From Glaciecola nitratireducens FR1064 (lineage in GTDB: Bacteria > Pseudomonadota > Gammaproteobacteria > Enterobacterales > Alteromonadaceae), in contig NC_016041.1 of NCBI RefSeq assembly GCF_000226565.1, positions 496,001 through 560,000 of the forward strand: DNA of 64,000 nt, in the 5' to 3' direction. Positions 3,941 to 12,477 of this stretch are shown piece by piece (within the stretch, counting starts at the first letter, position 1; the number at the start of each line of letters is the position of its first letter). Under the pieces are notes generated by a model. The model ran no database searches and was not told where the DNA came from. It worked only from the letters and a program-made list of their open reading frames with translations. The translations under genes and the position numbers were made by a program.

Positions 3941-4489
3941 ATGCAACTCATTAAGATTAATAAAGAACGTTATCGCCGCCATTTGAACTATGTCATCGTT
4001 GCCTGTGTGGCTGCTTTACTTATTGGAAGCTTGGGCATTTCGCAGACTTTAATTGCACTCTTTCCTGACGAAAGCGGCAGCCATTTTCACTGGAATTTGA
4101 CGGGGGTCATTGTTACAAGCTTAATCATCGGCCTAATGCTTAATAAGTACAAGTCTCACAACTTCATGACTGAAGTTGCATATGTATGGGAGCTAAAAAA
4201 AGCGCTCAATAGAATAAACCGAAGAATGTTGAAATTAAAAGCGGCTGCGCAAGAGGGAGATATAGATGCAATGCTTGCGATTAACTACAGTTACGCAGGC
4301 TCACGCCTGTTATGGCAGTTGGACGATAACACCATAATTATGGACCAGCTAGATGTCGATCAAGCAGCGCTTGATAGCTTGGTCGTGAAGTATAACTTAA
4401 CGCTTTCTCTTTATCTATTCGCCTTTTCTTCTTTGATTCGGCCTAAATCTTCGTTGTTTGCTCTATCATCGAGAATATCATCCTTGTAA
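3941..4489 (+). CDS. DUF3087-like two-helix membrane protein
   Basis: A 182-residue protein with two N-terminal membrane helices (about residues 19-40 and 52-68), a short loop, then a basic helical cytoplasmic region containing NRINRRMLKLKAAAQEGD and DDNT. This resembles the DUF3087 family of Alteromonadales and Vibrionales; its function is unknown. The last 25 or so residues (from about 157) are encoded within the 3' end of the convergent mechanosensitive channel gene, overlapping it by 79 bp, and read as low-complexity Ser/Leu. They may be a late extension after loss of an earlier stop codon. The start ATG follows a weak AGGCT. Confidence 0.7.
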   Translation: MQLIKINKERYRRHLNYVIVACVAALLIGSLGISQTLIALFPDESGSHFHWNLTGVIVTSLIIGLMLNKYKSHNFMTEVAYVWELKKALNRINRRMLKLKAAAQEGDIDAMLAINYSYAGSRLLWQLDDNTIIMDQLDVDQAALDSLVVKYNLTLSLYLFAFSSLIRPKSSLFALSSRISSL

Positions 4490-5070
4490 TTTTCTAAAGA
4501 AACGGTCGGTAGTAACTTGCCAAACCCTTGCAACCGTCTTCTTGGATTGAGCATCGTCAAACGAGTTAGTAACAGGTTGTTAGGATACATTATGATTTCT
4601 TCTTCATCGGTAATAAGCTTGATATTAAACAAGTTTACATCGGCTATTGTTCCTTCAACAAAGTTGTCACCCTCGAATACCCGAATGAAGTTGCCGCGGC
4701 TGTATGAAGGTTGAAATAACAAGATAAAGTAGGCCGTAATATTGCTGAGCAAAGACCAGTTAGCAAATAAAGCAACACCTGTAATGGTAATCAGTGAAGT
4801 TGAAACCAGTAACAACCCCGAGAAGTCGATACCCCAAACTAGGAATAATGCGGCTAGCGTCATCGTGCCAATAATAATACGCATGATATTAAACGCCTTT
4901 AGCGCGCTTTCTTCGCTGAGCTTACTAATCTTCACGCCTTTTCTTATCTTCGGCAAGGTCCATTTTACAATAATGATATGCAGCAATATAACGCCGCCGG
5001 ACCATAATAGGGTGATGTAGTACTTGTCCATCCAAGTAATAAAATTTGAAATAATCGGTAAGTCGGACAT
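4411..5070 (-). CDS. Small mechanosensitive channel of the MscS family
   Basis: A 219-residue membrane protein. Helices lie at about residues 15-35, 63-85 and 88-115; the third carries the Gly/Ala-containing pore stretch that ends in the QPSYSRGNFIRV beta-domain entry typical of MscS proteins. The following EGTIADVNLFNIKLITDEEEIIMYPNNLLL is the MscS beta domain (given here only as a landmark around residues 133-165). The protein is shorter than E. coli MscS (286 residues) and lacks most of the C-terminal alpha/beta domain. It would release solutes on hypo-osmotic shock. Its 3' end overlaps the convergent DUF3087 gene by 79 bp. Confidence 0.8.
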   Translation of the reverse strand: MSDLPIISNFITWMDKYYITLLWSGGVILLHIIIVKWTLPKIRKGVKISKLSEESALKAFNIMRIIIGTMTLAALFLVWGIDFSGLLLVSTSLITITGVALFANWSLLSNITAYFILLFQPSYSRGNFIRVFEGDNFVEGTIADVNLFNIKLITDEEEIIMYPNNLLLTRLTMLNPRRRLQGFGKLLPTVSLENYKDDILDDRANNEDLGRIKEEKANR

Positions 5071-5206: not shown

Positions 5207-5227
5207 ATATATAGTGGCGCTATATAT
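5207..5227. promoter_or_regulatory. rimK: Operator-like dyad in the rimK leader
   Basis: Perfect 8-bp arms ATATATAG and CTATATAT flank a 5-bp spacer, 17 bp upstream of the rimK ATG and just before its ribosome binding site AAGGA (5234-5238). Bound protein, or the equivalent RNA hairpin, could control transcription or ribosome access. No T-tract follows. The dyad contains the GTG that would be the upstream alternative rimK start, a further reason to prefer the later ATG. Confidence 0.4.
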
Positions 5228-5243: not shown

Positions 5244-6149
5244 ATGAAAATCGCAATTTTGTCGCGGAATCCTAAGCTTTATTCTACTAAAAGATTTGTT
5301 GAAGCGGGTGAGAAACTAGGTCACGAAGTCGATGTTATCGATACAATGCATTGCTACATGGATGTAACGAGCAGCCGCCCTTCGGTGCGCTACAAAGGTA
5401 AAGCATTACCACGCTATGATGCAGTAATCCCTCGAATTGGTGCATCGGTTACCTTTTATGGCACCTCTGTCGTTCGTCAGTTCGAAATGATGGGGACGTA
5501 TTCAATCAATGAGTCTGTTGCGATCAGTCGCTCAAGAGATAAATTACGCTCACTGCAGTTACTGTCTCGCAAGGGTATCGGTATGCCGAGAACAGGATTT
5601 GCCAATCACCCAGATAGAATTGACGACTTAATTAAAAACGTAGGCGGCGCGCCTGTTGTTATTAAATTGCTTGAGGGTACTCAAGGTATTGGTGTGGTAT
5701 TAGCCGATACTGCTAAAACTGCTGAAGCTATTATTGAGGCATTCATGGGGCTAAATGCGAGTATCTTGGTCCAAGAATATATAGAAGAAGCTGGTGGTGC
5801 GGACATTCGCTGCTTGGTTGTCGGTGGCAAAGTGATTGCTGCGATGAAGCGTCAAGGCGCGCCGGGCGAATTTCGTTCGAACTTGCACCGAGGCGGTTCA
5901 GCCAGCTTAGTTCGCTTGTCGCCCGCAGAAAGAAAAACAGCCGTAGATGCTGCAAAAACCATGGGTTTAAATATGTGTGGCGTTGACATTCTGCGCTCAA
6001 AAAATGGTCCAATGGTGATGGAAGTGAATTCTTCGCCCGGATTAGAAGGGATTGAAACTGCCACTGGAAAAGACATTGCTGGCATGATCATCGAATTCAT
6101 TGCCAACACAGCAACACCGAACAAAACAAAAACCAAAGGTAAAGGCTAA
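5244..6149 (+). CDS. rimK: RimK, ribosomal protein S6-L-glutamate ligase
   Basis: A 301-residue ATP-grasp ligase that adds glutamate residues to the C terminus of ribosomal protein S6. Visible features: the N-terminal [15 protein letters not shown], the nucleotide loop GTQGIGVVL (about residue 145), [10 protein letters not shown] (about 213) and the metal-binding [12 protein letters not shown] near residue 260, all as in E. coli RimK (300 residues). The ATG at 5244 is chosen over an in-frame GTG at 5214 because AAGGA lies 5 nt before it and because family proteins begin exactly here. The stop is 2 bp before the next gene, so the three genes to 7653 form one operon. Confidence 0.95.
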
Positions 6150-6151
6150 GC

Positions 6152-7177
6152 ATGAAGCGCCAAAACTTTGTAATTGGCGGGGAAGTCATTAAACCTGGCG
6201 AACAAAAGCGTTTGTTGCTGCTGATGCCTCCTTTGTATACCGCTACTACTATGGGTATTCCCGTCTTTGTACTACACGGTAAAAGGCCTGGACCCACTTT
6301 GTTTGTCAGTGCTGCAATTCATGGTGATGAACTAAACGGTATTGAGATTGTTAGTCGTCTAATAAAGGCGCGTGCAATAAAAAACCTCAGAGGCACACTT
6401 ATAGCGATACCGATGGTGAATGTGTACGGCGTTCTCAATCAAAGTCGTTATTTACCCGACCGCAGAGATTTGAATCGCTGCTTCCCAGGTAGTAAAAAGG
6501 GCTCGCTTGCAGGACGTATTGCGCGTTTATTTTTGGATGAAATCGTTAGCAAGTGTGATTATGGTATCGACTTGCATACAGGGGCTATACATCGTTCTAA
6601 TTTACCGCAAATACGCGCTAACTTGGACGACCCTGCAACATTGGAAATGGCCGAGGCGTTTGGCGTACCGGTGTTGTTGAACGCTGATATCCGTGACGGC
6701 TCATTGCGCCAAGCTGCAGCAGATGAAGGTGCTAAGGTACTACTTTACGAAGCGGGCGAAGCTTTGCGCTATGATGAATTCTCAATTGCAGCCGGTGTAA
6801 AAGGTATTATAAAAGTGATGCGTCACGTCGGCATGTTGAATAAAACTAAGTCGGTAGGACACAGCATTAAGCCATTCGTAGCAAGACAAAGCGGCTGGGT
6901 TAGAGCAAACGAAAGCGGCTTTGTTATGCACAAAGCGCAGTTGGGTGACCACGTCGTGAAGGGGGATTTACTTGCAGTTATCTCTAACCCTTTCGGTGAG
7001 CAGTTAGGTACGATTGACTCCCCAAGCACGGGTGTGGTCATAGGTAAGCAAAACATACCCCTAGCGCAAGAGGGCGAGGCGATTTATCATATTGCATACT
7101 TTAAAAAACCCATTGAAGTCGCTGAGCATGTCGAATTGTTGCAAGACAACTTGGATATAATTGATTCGTCTGATTAG
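6152..7177 (+). CDS. Succinylglutamate desuccinylase/aspartoacylase-family zinc hydrolase (RimK-linked)
   Basis: A 341-residue member of the AstE/AspA branch of the M14 carboxypeptidase fold. Zinc ligands are visible as HGDE (His57, Glu60) and DLHTG (His142), with the substrate-binding DLNRCFPG at 106-113 and a likely catalytic Glu200 in LYEAGEAL. A C-terminal beta-rich domain (about 245-325) resembles a biotinyl-lipoyl fold. It begins 2 bp after rimK stops and precedes a protease gene. Although annotated in databases as AstE-like, it is not in the ast cluster 3' of it, and the RimK link suggests that it acts on a glutamyl or acyl-glutamyl bond in that pathway. The substrate is not known. Confidence 0.85.
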   Translation: MKRQNFVIGGEVIKPGEQKRLLLLMPPLYTATTMGIPVFVLHGKRPGPTLFVSAAIHGDELNGIEIVSRLIKARAIKNLRGTLIAIPMVNVYGVLNQSRYLPDRRDLNRCFPGSKKGSLAGRIARLFLDEIVSKCDYGIDLHTGAIHRSNLPQIRANLDDPATLEMAEAFGVPVLLNADIRDGSLRQAAADEGAKVLLYEAGEALRYDEFSIAAGVKGIIKVMRHVGMLNKTKSVGHSIKPFVARQSGWVRANESGFVMHKAQLGDHVVKGDLLAVISNPFGEQLGTIDSPSTGVVIGKQNIPLAQEGEAIYHIAYFKKPIEVAEHVELLQDNLDIIDSSD

Positions 7178-7221
7178 GTAACCAATACAAATGGTTAACC
7201 TTTATTATTGAGAAGTGTAAA

Positions 7222-7653
7222 ATGAAAAAGAAGCTTACGGTTGGAAATTTGGAACAATGCGACCTCCCTGAACTAGGTATCAAAGGCCTCCATGTTCGAG
7301 TCGATACAGGCGCTACCACGTCATCTTTGCATGTCGATAATATTGAAGAAATTGATGTTGGCGAAGACACTTGGATAAAGTTTGATATTCACCCAGATAT
7401 TCATGATGTGAAAAAGCTGATCCGCTGCGAAGCTAAAGTAGCAGGTCAGCGCAAAGTAAAAAGTTCAACGGCCACAAGGCAGCGCCGCTATGTCATTGAA
7501 ACAGATATCGTGATGGCCGGTGAGCGCTGGCAAATTCAATTGACGCTGACGGATCGCTCCGAAATGACTTACTTGATGTTATTTGGACGTGAAGCAATGG
7601 CCGGCAGGTTCATTGTGGATCCAGAGCTAGAATATTTGCTGAACAAGACTTAA
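7222..7653 (+). CDS. Retropepsin-like protease (COG4067 / RimB-like), RimK operon
   Basis: A 143-residue protein with DTGATTSSLH at 28-37, the DTGA catalytic signature of retroviral-type aspartic proteases, and a flap-like strand region. Such proteins are often labelled 'ATP-dependent zinc protease', but I see no zinc motif. In Pseudomonas a protein of this kind (RimB) is encoded with RimK and is reported to act with it on S6 modification. Here it is third in the rimK operon, 44 bp after the hydrolase gene, and is followed by a terminator. Its role as an eraser of S6 glutamate tails is inference from family and position. Confidence 0.8.
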   Translation: MKKKLTVGNLEQCDLPELGIKGLHVRVDTGATTSSLHVDNIEEIDVGEDTWIKFDIHPDIHDVKKLIRCEAKVAGQRKVKSSTATRQRRYVIETDIVMAGERWQIQLTLTDRSEMTYLMLFGREAMAGRFIVDPELEYLLNKT

Positions 7654-7716
7654 TAAACGAGTGCAGGCACTTAAGCTTGCATGAAGCAGTCATTGAACTG
7701 TGATATCGAACTAAGG

Positions 7717-7749
7717 AGGCTCATTTAATCATAAATGAGCCTTTTCTTT
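7717..7749 (+). terminator. Rho-independent terminator of the rimK operon
   Basis: An 11-bp perfect stem (AGGCTCATTTA / TAAATGAGCCT) with a 4-nt ATCA loop is followed by TTTCTTT. It lies 64 bp after the protease stop codon and defines the end of the three-gene operon. Confidence 0.9.
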
Positions 7750-7879: not shown

Positions 7880-8686
7880 TTACTGAACGTTTGTACTTTC
7901 AAAAATCTTGTCTGCCGATGCAGCTACAAAGCCTTGATAGTACTCGCCGTTTTGCATTTTATAGCGCTGTGCAAATTCATAAAAACAGCTTGGAATAGAC
8001 ACTTCTATATCGCTGAACTTAACTTTTGACGCGTCAGCCATCGTTGATGACTGAGCTAAACACACGTCTTCGCCGCCTTTGATTTCGCCACCGGATGTAT
8101 TTAACGTAAATCCAGCCTGTTTAAGAATGTCATTTACTTCAGCCAATTCATCAATCTTATGAAGATGATTAACACTAACCGTGAAATGATTAGCGCGGTA
8201 GCCCCAAGCTGCCATCCATGCAGCGTATTCAGACTCAGCTAACAGCGTTTTATAGTCATCGTGTGAAACTGACCAATGGGTTCCTGAATATAGGAAGTTG
8301 TCTGCTTCAGTCGCACCTTTTTCTACGCTCGAAACCATCTTGTTGATAATCGTTTGTGCAGCTTCAGAAAGCTCGTTTACTCGTAACTCACTGATAAATA
8401 CTTTAGGTTGCGTTGTATCAGGGTGCTCAAAGTGCTGTGCGCTTAGCTTCTTACTTGCAAAGTCGTAGTCACCCTTCTGCTCATAACCCAGCGCAAGAAA
8501 ATGCGCAGCCAGTTTTTTCAAATTAACGCTTTCAAGATTAAAGGTGCGCAGGGCAATATGATCGTTAATGATCTCAGCTTCACCGGTTTTCTCCGCAAGC
8601 AACTGGTGTATCTTGTTCGCCGATGGGGTTATTTGAATATAGTTCTCCCAGAGGCCCTGAAACAACTTATTAATATCTGTGTGCAT
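7880..8686 (-). CDS. DUF1338 protein, 2-oxoadipate dioxygenase/decarboxylase-like (short form)
   Basis: A 268-residue protein of the DUF1338 family, whose characterised members (HglS/YdcJ, about 460 residues) turn 2-oxoadipate into 2-hydroxyglutarate using one iron. Candidate metal ligands are His43 in DHIALRTF and a histidine in NHFTVSVNHL. It is much shorter than HglS, so substrate range may differ. It is the last gene of the ast cluster, 20 bp after astD, with a good AAGGA upstream of its ATG. The context suggests a 2-oxoacid or lysine/arginine breakdown step, but activity cannot be read from sequence. Family call firm, function inferred. Confidence 0.75.
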   Translation of the reverse strand: MHTDINKLFQGLWENYIQITPSANKIHQLLAEKTGEAEIINDHIALRTFNLESVNLKKLAAHFLALGYEQKGDYDFASKKLSAQHFEHPDTTQPKVFISELRVNELSEAAQTIINKMVSSVEKGATEADNFLYSGTHWSVSHDDYKTLLAESEYAAWMAAWGYRANHFTVSVNHLHKIDELAEVNDILKQAGFTLNTSGGEIKGGEDVCLAQSSTMADASKVKFSDIEVSIPSCFYEFAQRYKMQNGEYYQGFVAASADKIFESTNVQ

Positions 8687-8706
8687 GTTTATTTCCTTAT
8701 CAGCTA

Positions 8707-10179
8707 TTAAAATTTAAGCCCAGGACTTAAAGATGATGGCAACGTTACGACATCTAGTTCTACCGACGCTACTGGGTAAGCGCAGTAGTCTGCCGCATAG
8801 TAAGCGCTTGCACGATGGTTTCCGCTTTCGCCGATGCCACCAAATGGCGCTGCACTGCTCGCGCCCGTAATAGGACGGTTCCAGTTAACAATACCAGCTC
8901 TAATACGCGCTAAGAAGTAGTCATAATCTGCTTTAGAGTCGCTTAACAGACCAGCAGATAAACCAAAGCTGGTGTTGTTTGCGTGCGCGATTGCGTCATC
9001 AAAATTGGTGTATCTGATCACCTTTAGAAGAGGACCGAAGTGCTCTTCATCGGGCATGTCGTTTGCGATTGCAGTAACATCAATAATACCAGGAGTAACA
9101 AAACCGGTATCTTTTTCTGTGTGTTCAAGCGCGACCAAACTTGTTGCACCTAAGCTTAAAAGCTGTTGCTGAGCACTTAACATGCCCGCAGCTGCAGCCG
9201 AGCTGATCATTGCACCCATGAAAGGTTGTTCTTCTGCGTCGTAATGGCCTACTTGAATATTTTTAGTGACTTCTAGCAAGCGCGCTAGCAAAACATCACC
9301 TTGGGCGTTGTCTTGAATGAATAAACGTCGAGCGCATGTGCAGCGTTGACCACTTGTCACGAACGCTGACTGCACAATATCATGTACGGCAGCGTCAACA
9401 TCGGCAACATCTTTAACGATGAGCGGGTTGTTGCCACCCATTTCCAAGGCTAAAATTTTGCCTGGATGACCTGCAAATTGTTCGTGAAGAATTTTACCAG
9501 TGCGAGAGCTTCCAGTGAAAAATAGACCGTCAATATTCGCATGACTAGCTAAGGCTTTGCCCGTTTCAACTTGACCTTGAATGAGGTTTAATACGCCATT
9601 TGGCAAGCCTGCTTTTTCCCAAAGCTGAACAATGAATTCGGCTACCATAGGAGTCAGATCGCTGGGTTTAAAAACGACTGTATTACCAGCAATCAATGCT
9701 GGAACAATATGACCGTTGGGTAAATGTCCTGGGAAATTATAAGGGCCAAACACAGCAACCACACCGTGTGGTTTATGGCGAATGATTGCTTGTCCAAGCG
9801 GCATTGCGTTTTCAACAGTGCCCGTGCGTTCGTGGTAAGCCTTTTCAGAGATAGCAATTTTACCAATCATTGCGCCTACTTCAGTGGCAGTTTCCCACTC
9901 CGGCTTTCCCGTTTCTTTCGCAATAATCTTCGCAAGTTCAGTTTTGTGTTCACCTAGAAGTTCAGCAAACTTCTTAATAATTACTAAGCGTTCATCTACC
10001 GTCATTAAAGACCAAGCTGGAAAGGCATTACGAGCGGCAACAACTGCTTCGTTTACTTGTGCCGAGGACGCTGATTTTGCTGACCATATAACGACATTTT
10101 TTGCAGGATCAATTGAGTTAATATCATGGCCTGAGCCGGCTATCCATTGACCATTGATAAAGTGTGTTGAATTTGTCAT
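8707..10179 (-). CDS. astD: AstD, N-succinylglutamate 5-semialdehyde dehydrogenase
   Basis: A 490-residue NAD-dependent aldehyde dehydrogenase catalysing the fourth step of the arginine succinyltransferase pathway. Visible are NAD-binding [15 protein letters not shown], the glycine loop FTGSSRTGK, the general-base glutamate in [11 protein letters not shown], and the nucleophile Cys in [11 protein letters not shown]. Length and the [10 protein letters not shown] signature fit AstD closely. ATG at 10179 has AGGAG upstream. It lies 8 bp after astA, in the order astC-astA-astD. Confidence 0.93.
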
Positions 10180-10187
10180 TTGTACTC

Positions 10188-11222
10188 CTAGTGCTTTGTG
10201 TTGGCAGGTGAGAAACGAATTGAGTCGCCGTCTTTAATACCTAATGCCTTGGCAGTTGCACGTTCTATTGCAACACGATTACCGTCAACATAAGCGATTT
10301 CTGCGATACAAGCTCTAAAGTCTTCTACCGATGTATTGATTGCAAAACAGGTTTCACCGTCGGTTTGAGCGAGGTTGTCATTAATTACAATAGATACTTT
10401 GCGGCTAGCTTGCACCGTTGCAATGTTCTTTACGTCGGCTTCAACCGTAGGGCCAGCATCAAATATATCCACGTAACCACGACATTTGAAGCCCTCTTGC
10501 TCGAGCAAGCGTAGCGCGGGTTTGGTTTTTTCATGCACCTTACCAATGCAATCTTGCGCAGCTTTACTGAGCAGTTTCACATAAATAGGATATTTAGGCA
10601 TGAGTTCAGCAATGAACACTTTATTACCAATCCCTGTTAGGTAATCGGCAGTTGGGAAATCCATTGAGAAGAAATGCTCTTCAAGCCACGCCCAAAAAGG
10701 AGAACGGCCTTTATCGTCACTAATACCACGCATTTCAGCAATGACAACGTCAGCGAAACGTTCTTTATGCTCAGCCATGAAAAGAAAGCGCATTTTAGAT
10801 AGAAAGCGACCGTTTAGACCCTGTCGTGCATTCTCTCTCAAGAACAGTGTGCAAATTTCACTGACGCCAGTGTAATCGTTGCAAAAATGCAGTATTTCAG
10901 CAGTATTGTGCACATTCAATTCACGTGATGCATGCACCACTTTACTTACGTGATAGTGATAAAATGCATCTTGCAAACCGACGGTTGCTTCAATGCCGCT
11001 AGTACCGACTACTTCACCAGTTTCCGTATCTTCCATCACGAAAAGGTAGCTTTGCATACCTGGTTCAGTCGGCGTTGACTGAATAGCGGCTTCTGCTTTG
11101 ACTAATTTGCGTCGCAGCAAAGCTTCGTTCACTGGAAGTGAAGTAAAGCCTATACCTGATTCTTGCGCTATTTCATTCAGTGCCTTGTAATCAGACACCT
11201 TAATAGGACGAATAATTTTCAT
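10188..11222 (-). CDS. astA: AstA, arginine N-succinyltransferase
   Basis: A 344-residue enzyme transferring succinyl from succinyl-CoA to the alpha-amino group of arginine, the first step of the AST pathway. It begins [15 protein letters not shown] and contains [22 protein letters not shown] (around residues 125-150), a hallmark of this family, plus [17 protein letters not shown]-like sequence near residue 255 (here [15 protein letters not shown]). ATG at 11222 is preferred to the TTG one codon earlier; AGGGAT lies upstream. It is followed 8 bp later by astD. astB and astE of the full pathway are not in this cluster. Confidence 0.93.
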
Positions 11223-11262
11223 CAAATGATCCCTATGGTTGTTGGTGACAACCTAAAAAAGA

Positions 11263-12468
11263 CTAAGCGGCAACGACTGAGGCGACAGCCTTCTCGAAAC
11301 GAGCTAAACCTTCAATAATGTCTTCATCTGGGATAACTAATGATGGAGCAAAACGAATAACGTTCACGCCTGCTATTAAGCACATCATATGCTGTTCGTT
11401 TGCTGCGACCATGAAATCACGTGAGCGGCCCGCATATTTCTCATTTAACGCGCAACCTAATAACATTCCTTTGCCGCGAATTTCGCTAAACACATGGTAC
11501 TTGTCATTAATTTTACCTAAAATTTCGCGAAACAGAGCTTCTTTCTTCAGCACGCCAGCAAGTACTTCTGGCTTGTTAACTACGTCTAATACTCTTTCCG
11601 CTATAGCACATGCTAGTGGGTTACCACCATAGGTACTGCCGTGTGTACCTGGCTTTAAACTACTCGCTATTGCGTCGGTAGTTAACATTGCGCCGATTGG
11701 AAAGCCGCCGCCTAATGATTTAGCTGTCGTCAAAATGTCAGGAGTTACGTCAACGCCCATATAAGCGTATAAATAGCCTGTTCTGCCAACACCACTTTGC
11801 ACTTCATCAAAAATGAGCAAAGCATTGTGTTTATCACAAAGCTCTCTCACGCCTTTAACAAATGCAGGGTCAGGAACGATAATGCCGCCTTCACCTTGTA
11901 AGGGCTCCATCATGATGGCGCAAGTGCGCTCTGACATCATTTCAGCTAGCATTTCGAGGTTGTTATATTCACAATGCACAATGCCGCCTGGCTTTGGACC
12001 GAAGCCGTCTGAATAAGCCGGTTGACCACCTACAGTAACGGTAAAGAAAGTACGACCGTGAAAGCCCTGTTTGAATGAGATGATTTGATCTTTGTCTTCG
12101 TTGTAATGGTCAAGAGCGAATCGACGAGCGAGTTTTAAAGCAGCCTCGTTAGCTTCAGCACCTGAGTTCGCGAAATAGACTTTATCAGCAAAAGTAGCGT
12201 CACATAACTTTTTAGCCAAGCGCATAGCTGGTTCGTTCGTGAATACATTACTTAAATGCCATAGCTTGCTGCCTTGTTCCTGCAATACGTTTACTAGTTC
12301 AGGATGACAATGGCCTAGCGCATTAACCGCAATACCGCCCGCAAAATCGATGTATTCGTTACCCTCTTGATCCCAAACGCGAGAGCCTTCTCCACGCACC
12401 GGCACCATTTGTGCAGGGTTATAGTTAGGTACCATTACATCATCAAACGTTGAACGATTCACTTGCAT
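11263..12468 (-). CDS. astC: ArgD/AstC, acetylornithine/succinylornithine aminotransferase
   Basis: A 401-residue class-III PLP aminotransferase. The PLP lysine is in [15 protein letters not shown], with the cofactor Asp in [15 protein letters not shown] and the substrate-side [17 protein letters not shown]. Proteins of this type serve both arginine synthesis (acetylornithine) and AST catabolism (succinylornithine). The genomic place, first in astC-astA-astD, points to the catabolic role, but the argCBFGHA operon elsewhere in the window has no argD, so it may serve both. I chose ATG at 12468 because AGAGGTG lies 7 nt before it; a GTG start at 12477 is possible. Confidence 0.88.
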
Positions 12469-12477
12469 GTCATACAC

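What the first reader, a model, noticed from the sequence alone, without database searches (positions are those of the whole stretch)
5244..7653. RimK operon with two hydrolases: possible write/erase system for glutamate tails
RimK (ligase), an M14/AstE-like zinc hydrolase (H57, E60, H142, E200) and a retropepsin-like DTGA protease share one operon with a clean terminator. The family roles and close linkage suggest that S6 or another target is glutamylated and then trimmed, the AstE-like enzyme releasing terminal glutamate and the protease acting on the protein. The AstE-like partner is the least explained member.
Basis: partly seen in the sequence, partly recalled or inferred. Interest (0 to 1): 0.6.

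Follow-up and report, generated by a model that had tools for sequence, protein, structure and literature searches.

The report
Polyglutamate operon tied to ion channels
Three neighbouring genes are kept together in many bacteria: one enzyme strings glutamates together, a protease like one known to cut such chains, and a third, unstudied enzyme that probably digests them to single glutamates; the set often sits beside magnesium transporters and pressure-sensitive channels, which hints at a role in salt and water balance.

Summary
In detail: rimK (5244-6149), an AstE/DoeB-fold zinc hydrolase gene (6152-7177) and a RimB-like retropepsin gene (7222-7653), one direction, strong terminator. Write/erase by RimK and RimB is already published for Pseudomonas. 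The hydrolase is the new part. In 148 genomes of the order its orthologue occurs in 57, all with rimK, 53 linked to it, 44 also to rimB; of the 80 best named loci 56 are rimK-astE-rimB, in several phyla and one archaeon. It is a distinct subfamily with extra invariant arginines (R148, R155, R186), kept in secreted paralogues but not in 5 other paralogues; the genome's true AstE lies elsewhere. Best reading: an exo- or dipeptide hydrolase finishing poly-alpha-glutamate breakdown. S6 as target is unproven: S6 here ends SEEGDA, not Glu. Unexpectedly, MscS channels and MgtE/CorA magnesium transporters lie beside these operons far above chance; a Vibrio plasmid has rimK-astE-rimB-mgtE-corA-mscS in one tight run. 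Published data show rimK 52-fold up in low salt in Photobacterium. This points to ionic or osmotic adaptation. Function is inferred, not shown.

The parts
5244..6149 (+). rimK, ATP-grasp alpha-L-glutamate ligase (301 aa from ATG 5244; an in-frame GTG lies at 5214)
   Evidence: PF08443, PF18030, NF007764 above cut-off; linked to astE in 53 of 57 AstE-bearing genomes of the order
6152..7177 (+). AstE/DoeB-fold zinc hydrolase, RimK-linked subfamily (341 aa); predicted poly-alpha-glutamate exo- or dipeptide hydrolase
   Evidence: PF24827; model pLDDT 87.2; best solved folds 3cdx and DoeB, then CphZ; H57, E60, H142, E200, N108, R109 invariant in 131 of 131 rows
7222..7653 (+). RimB-like retropepsin (143 aa, DTGA at residues 28-31)
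   Evidence: PF05618; best NCBIfam model RimB but below its cut-off; D28 in 69 of 69
7714..7745 (+). intrinsic terminator after rimB
   Evidence: 14-bp stem, 4-nt loop, T-rich tail, -16.9 kcal/mol, z -4.77
4411..5070 (-). short MscS-family channel gene, divergent from rimK (173 bp between)
   Evidence: PF00924; related to the 190-aa MscS of the Vibrio europaeus operon, 32% identity, E 3.5e-18; MscS neighbours enriched at these operons

Best explanation
The locus encodes a module that makes and destroys poly-alpha-glutamate. RimK joins glutamates into chains, free or on an acceptor protein. The RimB-like retropepsin cuts inside such chains and may stimulate RimK. The AstE-like zinc enzyme then removes terminal glutamates or splits short glutamate peptides, returning free glutamate. 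The module works alongside ion and turgor control (MscS, MgtE, CorA). Shown here: the gene families, their co-conservation, the subfamily-specific arginine-rich residue set, and the transporter neighbourhood. Published for Pseudomonas: RimK synthesis and RimB cleavage. Inferred: the substrate of the AstE-like enzyme, the acceptor of RimK here, and the ionic or osmotic role.
For: AstE orthologues in 57 of 148 genomes, 57 of 57 with rimK, 53 linked, 44 also with rimB; 56 of 80 named loci rimK-astE-rimB and 13 more rimK-astE; overlapping or nearly touching genes in Vibrio europaeus. R105, R148, N150, Q153, R155, R186 are invariant (R148 in 130) in 131 orthologue rows and in 12 secreted paralogues, and other residues stand there in 5 other PF24827 paralogues, by one MAFFT alignment. 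N108-R109 is conserved as in DoeB; that this pair binds a free alpha-carboxylate in the M14/AstE fold is recalled. Precedent within the fold: CphZ, a dipeptide hydrolase that finishes breakdown of cyanophycin (fold match; passage in PMC10206079). RimK with RimB makes free poly-alpha-glutamate up to 28 units in vitro (PMC11957791). MscS, MgtE and CorA within 5 kb: 9, 8 and 9 genes against 0.36, 0.17 and 0.18 expected.
Against: No biochemistry was found for this subfamily. 25 of 148 genomes have rimK with neither gene linked and 16 have rimK-rimB without a linked astE, so astE is not required for RimK action. 11 of 80 named loci show astE with no rimK within 4 kb (some are short contigs, at least L185, L186, L204 and L214 are not). 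In 4 of 57 genomes astE lies away from rimK. Closest solved relatives are DoeB-type deacylases, so a small N-acyl substrate is possible. The Poisson estimates ignore shared ancestry, and 12 of the 19 genomes searched for MscS have none near.
Confidence: 0.5

Rival explanations
1. One reading: a dedicated S6 tail editor. RimK adds glutamates to S6, RimB cuts the tail, the AstE-like enzyme trims the last residues and sets a defined tail length to tune translation.
For: RimK and RimB act so on RpsF in Pseudomonas (PMC7343187, PMC11957791, passages). S6 ends in Glu in 60 of 74 rimK-bearing genomes read against 11 of 17 without rimK, a weak tendency (Fisher P 0.19); within family f2, 2 of 2 with rimK end in Glu and 3 of 3 without do not.
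Against: S6 of this organism ends SEEGDA, and 11 of 44 genomes with all three genes linked have S6 ending in Ala. Whether RimK accepts a non-Glu end was not tested; a need for a terminal Glu is recalled only.
Confidence: 0.25
2. The AstE-like enzyme is a deacylase of a small acidic metabolite (like DoeB on N-acetyl-diaminobutyrate), perhaps a peptide osmolyte made by RimK, linked through osmoadaptation rather than through polyglutamate.
For: Closest solved folds are DoeB and relatives, Z about 30. The transporter context would fit osmolyte metabolism.
Against: Scores far below the DoeB, AstE and aspartoacylase cut-offs. The segment R148-R155 differs from DoeB and carries extra invariant arginines. 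A PF05618 retropepsin, the family of the Pseudomonas polyglutamate protease, is linked in 56 of 80 named loci.
Confidence: 0.15
3. The enzyme is the succinylglutamate desuccinylase of the arginine succinyltransferase pathway, whose astC, astA and astD genes lie next door on the other strand (8707-12477).
For: astD, astA and astC models are met by the neighbouring genes; the fold is right.
Against: 28.8 bits against the AstE cut-off of 305.65. Another gene of the same genome (L035, G000:C1 about 1.80 Mb) passes that cut-off with 334.2 bits. No astC, astA or astD homologue lies in any of the 80 named loci (tblastn E 1e-20).
Confidence: 0.02
4. The genes travel together as an easily transferred cassette (also on plasmids) without functional coupling to the transporters.
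For: 66 plasmid records hold relatives of the AstE-like protein, some of them distant; the quick tree places lineages from different phyla close together with moderate support.
Against: Order varies (K-A-B, B-K-A, K-A-MscS-B, B-A-K) while membership stays. Among genomes that have a CorA gene it is near 8 of 17 astE-linked operons and 0 of 15 lone rimK genes, P 0.003; for MgtE the same contrast is 8 of 21 against 0 of 6, P 0.14, not significant.
Confidence: 0.08

Closest known systems
rimABK / rimBK operon of Pseudomonas (PMC4741518, listing only; PMC7343187, PMC11957791 and PMC10092738, passages)
   Same: rimK with a PF05618 retropepsin; RimK adds and RimB removes glutamates; link to c-di-GMP there (rimA phosphodiesterase)
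   Different: The words succinylglutamate, AstE and aspartoacylase do not occur in the two rim papers searched for them; no rimA beside rimK in the window; here astE is part of the unit and an MscS gene is divergent
RloABC system of Pseudomonas aeruginosa (PMC12239564, passages)
   Same: PF05618 retropepsin plus ATP-grasp protein; RloA cleaves polyglutamate in vitro and the three RloA proteases together are needed in hypoosmotic medium
   Different: RloA is secreted and RloB is a membrane transglutaminase-like protein; the window's RimB has no strongly hydrophobic N-terminus; deleting rimB gave no such phenotype there
Cyanophycin pathway: CphA, cyanophycinase, CphZ (PMC10206079, passages)
   Same: Ligase-made polymer, a first hydrolase and an AstE-fold dipeptide hydrolase; CphZ is among the nearest solved folds, Z 25.7
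   Different: Asp-Arg polymer, a different first hydrolase; 16-17% identity
Tubulin polyglutamylation: TTLL ligases and CCP deglutamylases (roles recalled)
   Same: A ligase writes glutamate chains and an M14-fold carboxypeptidase erases them; CCP5 with a Glu-phosphinic peptide is in the fold list, Z 13.7
   Different: Eukaryotic, different subfamily; Z is no higher than for ordinary carboxypeptidases in the same list

Membership tests
RimK, S6--L-glutamate ligase (NF007764) | Score over the curated equivalog cut-off | tested here: met
   450.1 bits against 331
RimK, S6--L-glutamate ligase (NF007764) | S6 of the same organism with a C-terminal glutamate to extend | tested here: not met
   S6 ends SEEGDA; this bears on the substrate, not on the enzyme family
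RimK, S6--L-glutamate ligase (NF007764) | Adds glutamates to S6 or makes poly-alpha-glutamate | not testable with these tools
   needs purified protein
RimB retropepsin (NF052261) | PF05618 domain with DTG catalytic motif | tested here: met
   113.3 bits against 27; D28 in 69 of 69
RimB retropepsin (NF052261) | Score over the NCBIfam equivalog cut-off | tested here: not met
   114.3 bits against 200; therefore called RimB-like
RimB retropepsin (NF052261) | In one operon with rimK, no signal peptide | tested here: met
   same strand, one gene between; hydropathy only, no signal-peptide program
Succinylglutamate desuccinylase AstE (TIGR03242) | Score over cut-off | tested here: not met
   28.8 bits against 305.65; another gene of the genome passes with 334.2
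DoeB N-acetyl-diaminobutyrate deacetylase (TIGR02994) | Score over cut-off | tested here: not met
   92.6 bits against 402.7
AstE_AspA_cat superfamily (PF24827) | Domain score and zinc/catalytic residues HxxE...H...E | tested here: met
   143.9 bits against 25; H57, E60, H142, E200 in 131 of 131 rows
Pseudomonas rimABK operon | rimB, with or without rimA, as rimK's operon partner and no other gene | tested here: not met
   The gene before rimK is an MscS channel gene on the other strand and astE lies between rimK and rimB
CphZ cyanophycin dipeptide hydrolase | Encoded beside cyanophycin synthetase | tested here: not met
   RimK is the neighbour; it scores 73.4 bits against 850 for cyanophycin synthetase. 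By sequence CphZ matches only over profile positions 246-297

The most novel reading that the evidence does not exclude
Many bacteria carry a polyglutamate buffer for ionic and osmotic change. When salt drops, RimK locks free glutamate into poly-alpha-glutamate, lowering the number of osmotically active molecules while keeping negative charge, with MscS and Mg2+ transporters adjusting ions. When salt rises, RimB and the AstE-like enzyme release glutamate again. S6 tailing is then one side branch, and the AstE-like family is the missing exopeptidase of the cycle.
Probability: 0.3. Interest if true: 0.82.

Novelty: new variant of a known kind. Interest (0 to 1): 0.62.

Why it matters
RimK has been known since 1989 (reference seen in PMC12239564), yet why cells make polyglutamate is still debated. 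A third conserved enzyme and a tight link to MscS, MgtE and CorA give a concrete, testable idea: polyglutamate turnover as part of salt and magnesium adaptation. It also gives a function hypothesis for a widespread family annotated only as 'succinylglutamate desuccinylase/aspartoacylase family protein'.

Tried and rejected
Considered and set aside: AstE or DoeB proper (scores far below cut-offs), and AstE for the astC-astA-astD genes next door (true AstE elsewhere, no ast genes in the 80 named loci). A plain rimABK copy (no rimA beside rimK). Chance adjacency. A fusion of the AstE-like domain with RimK or RimB: the long open frames that I looked at (L042, L047, L049, L052, whose output was cut; N-termini of 12) are signal-bearing paralogues, 35-40% identical; the AstE, RimK and RimB clusters stayed separate, so no fusion joined them. 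The consensus terminator scan missed the hairpin; folding found it. Plasmid hit H14 (Haloferax, 35% identity) has no annotated rimK within 5 kb, so distant archaeal plasmid relatives may have another function.

Results that weaken my reading: S6 ends in Glu only slightly more often with rimK (60 of 74 against 11 of 17, P 0.19). In the contrast with lone rimK genes 10 of the 16 such genomes have no MgtE gene at all; among genomes that have one it is 8 of 21 against 0 of 6, P 0.14, whereas CorA gives 8 of 17 against 0 of 15, P 0.003. One CorA lies near a rimK-rimB operon without astE. LysR-type and ill-defined antisense frames formed clusters of 18 loci each, as large as CorA and MgtE (17 each); LysR genes are common and no background was counted for them.

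Literature: the paper I recall as most likely to have listed RimK with AstE-like and retropepsin genes (Iyer and colleagues 2009, amidoligases, Mol BioSyst; recalled, not read) is not held, so I do not claim that the gene association is unpublished. Searches that found nothing on the linkage: RimK with succinylglutamate desuccinylase, 0 papers; RimK with mechanosensitive, 24 papers, 15 listed, judged by title except PMC10219603; RimK with magnesium transporter or glutamate ligase, 34 papers, 15 listed; one search was too broad (18,433 papers) to say anything. Other searches. PMC4431377 was searched for AstE, retropepsin and mechanosensitive, 0 each. PMC9974463 (CphZ) is not held. The E. coli Cs+ paper (PMC10831881, passages) has a RimK substitution among three; too indirect to use.

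Rows left out before counts: 26 of 86 AstE rows (E above 1e-90: secreted and other paralogues), RimB rows weaker than about 1e-18 and those the tool did not list. In one search, 91 of 145 genomes with an S6 match were read. In one search, 4 of 9 intended outgroup paralogues fell out by length, so 5 were compared; L020 was left out. In one search, 69 sequences passed a length filter, from a cluster in 75 loci. In one search the quick tree method was used and long branches meet; only the separation of the secreted clade and of the other paralogues is used. Named loci are the best 80 of 579 or more, so they lean to close relatives, and several are metagenome assemblies.
Full report
WHAT IS THERE. 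The window holds, on the + strand, rimK (5244-6149), an AstE/DoeB-fold gene (6152-7177) and a PF05618 retropepsin gene (7222-7653), with 2 nt and 44 nt between them. A 14-bp hairpin with a T-rich tail follows at 7714-7745, -16.9 kcal/mol and z -4.77. The gene before rimK, 4411-5070 on the other strand, is a short MscS-family channel (PF00924). The nearest named relatives are Alteromonas and other Alteromonadaceae (74-77% identity for the AstE-like protein).

CO-CONSERVATION. In 148 genomes drawn from the window's order, the AstE-like orthologue (E at most 1e-90) occurs in 57; 57 of 57 also have rimK; in 53 it lies within 4 kb of rimK and in 44 of these rimB is linked too (tallied). Of the 148, 9 have rimK-astE only, 16 have rimK-rimB linked without a linked astE (4 of them with astE elsewhere), 25 have rimK with neither linked, and 54 lack rimK at the cut-off used. 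Among the 80 best named loci from genome contigs, 56 are rimK-astE-rimB, 13 rimK-astE and 11 astE without rimK within 4 kb. Those with rimK include records named as Planctomycetes, Nitrospirota, Arcobacter, Bdellovibrionales, Omnitrophota, Acidobacteria and the archaeon Methanolobus; several are metagenome assemblies. An Acaryochloris (cyanobacterium) plasmid also has rimB-rimK-astE. The order of genes varies (K-A-B, B-K-A, B-A-K, K-A-MscS-B), which argues for selection on membership rather than a frozen block.

THE AstE-LIKE ENZYME. It scores far below the AstE, DoeB and aspartoacylase models. The genes astC, astA and astD of arginine catabolism lie next door on the other strand, but the genome's true AstE is another gene about 1.3 Mb away, and none of the 80 named loci has these ast genes. 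Over 131 orthologue rows H57, E60, H142, E200, N108 and R109 do not vary, as expected for the fold; R105, R148 (130), N150, Q153, R155 and R186 do not vary either. In 5 other PF24827 paralogues these last six positions hold other residues, while 12 secreted paralogues keep all six and mostly lose R206 (one MAFFT alignment). The profile alignment to solved DoeB shows GGKTLDFVPFAA where the window has GAIHRSNLPQIR. The predicted model (pLDDT 87.2, low at residues 91-102) matches 3cdx and DoeB best (Z about 30) and CphZ next (Z 25.7); AstE, aspartoacylase, ordinary M14 carboxypeptidases and CCP5 follow at Z 13-16. Inference: a zinc exo- or dipeptide hydrolase with a pocket for several carboxylates, which fits glutamate oligomers. 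Distances in the model were not measured. The cyanophycin pathway is a precedent for an AstE-fold enzyme finishing the breakdown of a ligase-made polymer (PMC10206079, passages).

RimK AND RimB. In Pseudomonas RimK adds glutamates to RpsF, RimB removes them and stimulates free poly-alpha-glutamate synthesis, with chains up to 28 units when RimB is present (PMC7343187 and PMC11957791, passages). The write/erase idea for these two is therefore known. The window's retropepsin is below the NCBIfam RimB cut-off, so I call it RimB-like; its catalytic D28 is kept in 69 of 69.

THE S6 QUESTION. S6 of this genome ends SEEGDA. Of 91 genomes read, S6 ends in Glu in 33 of 44 with all three genes linked (the other 11 end in Ala), 8 of 8 with rimK-astE, 8 of 10 with rimK-rimB, 11 of 12 with rimK alone and 11 of 17 without rimK. 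Together 60 of 74 against 11 of 17 is a weak tendency (Fisher P 0.19). The window's own clade and family f11 keep the full operon without a terminal Glu. S6 may still be a target if RimK accepts other ends; this cannot be decided here.

THE UNEXPECTED NEIGHBOURS. Clustering of flanking genes over 118 loci gave, right after the three operon genes, an MscS cluster (31 loci); CorA and MgtE clusters had 17 loci each, and a LysR and an ill-defined antisense cluster 18 each (identities of 10 channel or transporter proteins checked). Genome-wide counts give a background: within 5 kb of the operon or rimK there are 9 MscS genes in 7 of 19 genomes (0.36 expected), 8 MgtE genes in 8 of 41 (0.17 expected) and 9 CorA genes in 9 of 41 (0.18 expected). 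By class: MgtE near 7 of 17 three-gene operons, 1 of 4 rimK-astE, 0 of 4 rimK-rimB, 0 of 16 lone rimK; CorA 6 of 17, 2 of 4, 1 of 4, 0 of 16; MscS 7 of 10, 0 of 2, 0 of 3, 0 of 4. Counting only genomes that have the gene, astE-linked against lone rimK is 8 of 17 against 0 of 15 for CorA (P 0.003) and 8 of 21 against 0 of 6 for MgtE (P 0.14). So the excess over chance is clear, while the link to astE in particular is significant for CorA only. Within the 80 named loci, 29 have at least one of the three within 2.5 kb, and density near the operon is 6 to 14 times that farther out. These numbers do not correct for shared ancestry. The clearest case is Vibrio europaeus plasmid pVeu-CECT8426: a diguanylate cyclase gene, then rimK, astE, rimB, mgtE, corA, mscS with gaps of 28, -1, 10, -8, 77 and -1 nt, then a universal stress protein gene. 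Salinivibrio proteolyticus (mscS, mgtE) and Vibrio nigripulchritudo (mscS) plasmids show parts of it; in Photobacterium sp. DA100 only rimB-rimK-astE was found within 6 kb.

INDEPENDENT PUBLISHED SIGNS. In Photobacterium damselae rimK is 52-fold and mgtE 5.35-fold higher at 1% than at 3% NaCl (PMC10308900, abstract and passages); whether astE lies by that rimK was not seen, and the mgtE tag is far from the rimK tag. In aquatic genome comparisons K05844, K03284 and K03282 are more frequent in brackish than in marine relatives; the paper calls them a glutamate modification gene, a magnesium uptake system and a mechanosensitive channel (PMC10219603, passages; that K05844 is RimK and K03284 CorA is recalled and fits the cited references). 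The secreted RimB paralogues RloA are needed in hypoosmotic medium, but deleting rimB itself had no effect there (PMC12239564, passages).

CONCLUSION. The unit is a variant of the known RimK/RimB system with a third conserved, uncharacterised hydrolase. Most likely it turns over poly-alpha-glutamate, and its neighbourhood points to ionic or osmotic adaptation. The gene-level statements are shown; substrate and physiology are inferred.

Noticed in passing
L042-L052, L059 (families f9, f12, f17, f20): A paralogue of the AstE-like enzyme with a signal-like N-terminus and extra acidic sequence (35-40% identity) keeps the arginine-rich residue set and stands away from rimK; it parallels the secreted RloA paralogues of RimB and may act on polyglutamate in the periplasm.
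   Followed up: partly
L252:2346-9407 (Vibrio europaeus plasmid): A plasmid-borne run diguanylate cyclase-rimK-astE-rimB-mgtE-corA-mscS; with Pseudomonas rimA this is a second c-di-GMP link to rimK operons. Salinivibrio (L254) also has a diguanylate cyclase 0.7 kb downstream of astE.
   Followed up: partly
S6 genes of 91 genomes (L041, L082-L171): In family f2, S6 ends in Glu in 2 of 2 genomes with rimK and in Ala or Lys in 3 of 3 without, as if the terminal Glu is lost with rimK; too few for a claim.
   Followed up: no
window 3941-4489 and 4411-5070: A DUF3087 gene and the MscS-like gene converge and overlap by 79 bases.
   Followed up: no
window 7880-12477: Beyond the terminator, on the other strand, lie a 2-oxoadipate dioxygenase/decarboxylase family gene (PF07063) and astD, astA and astC of arginine catabolism; an AstE-annotated gene beside them could mislead an annotator.
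   Followed up: yes
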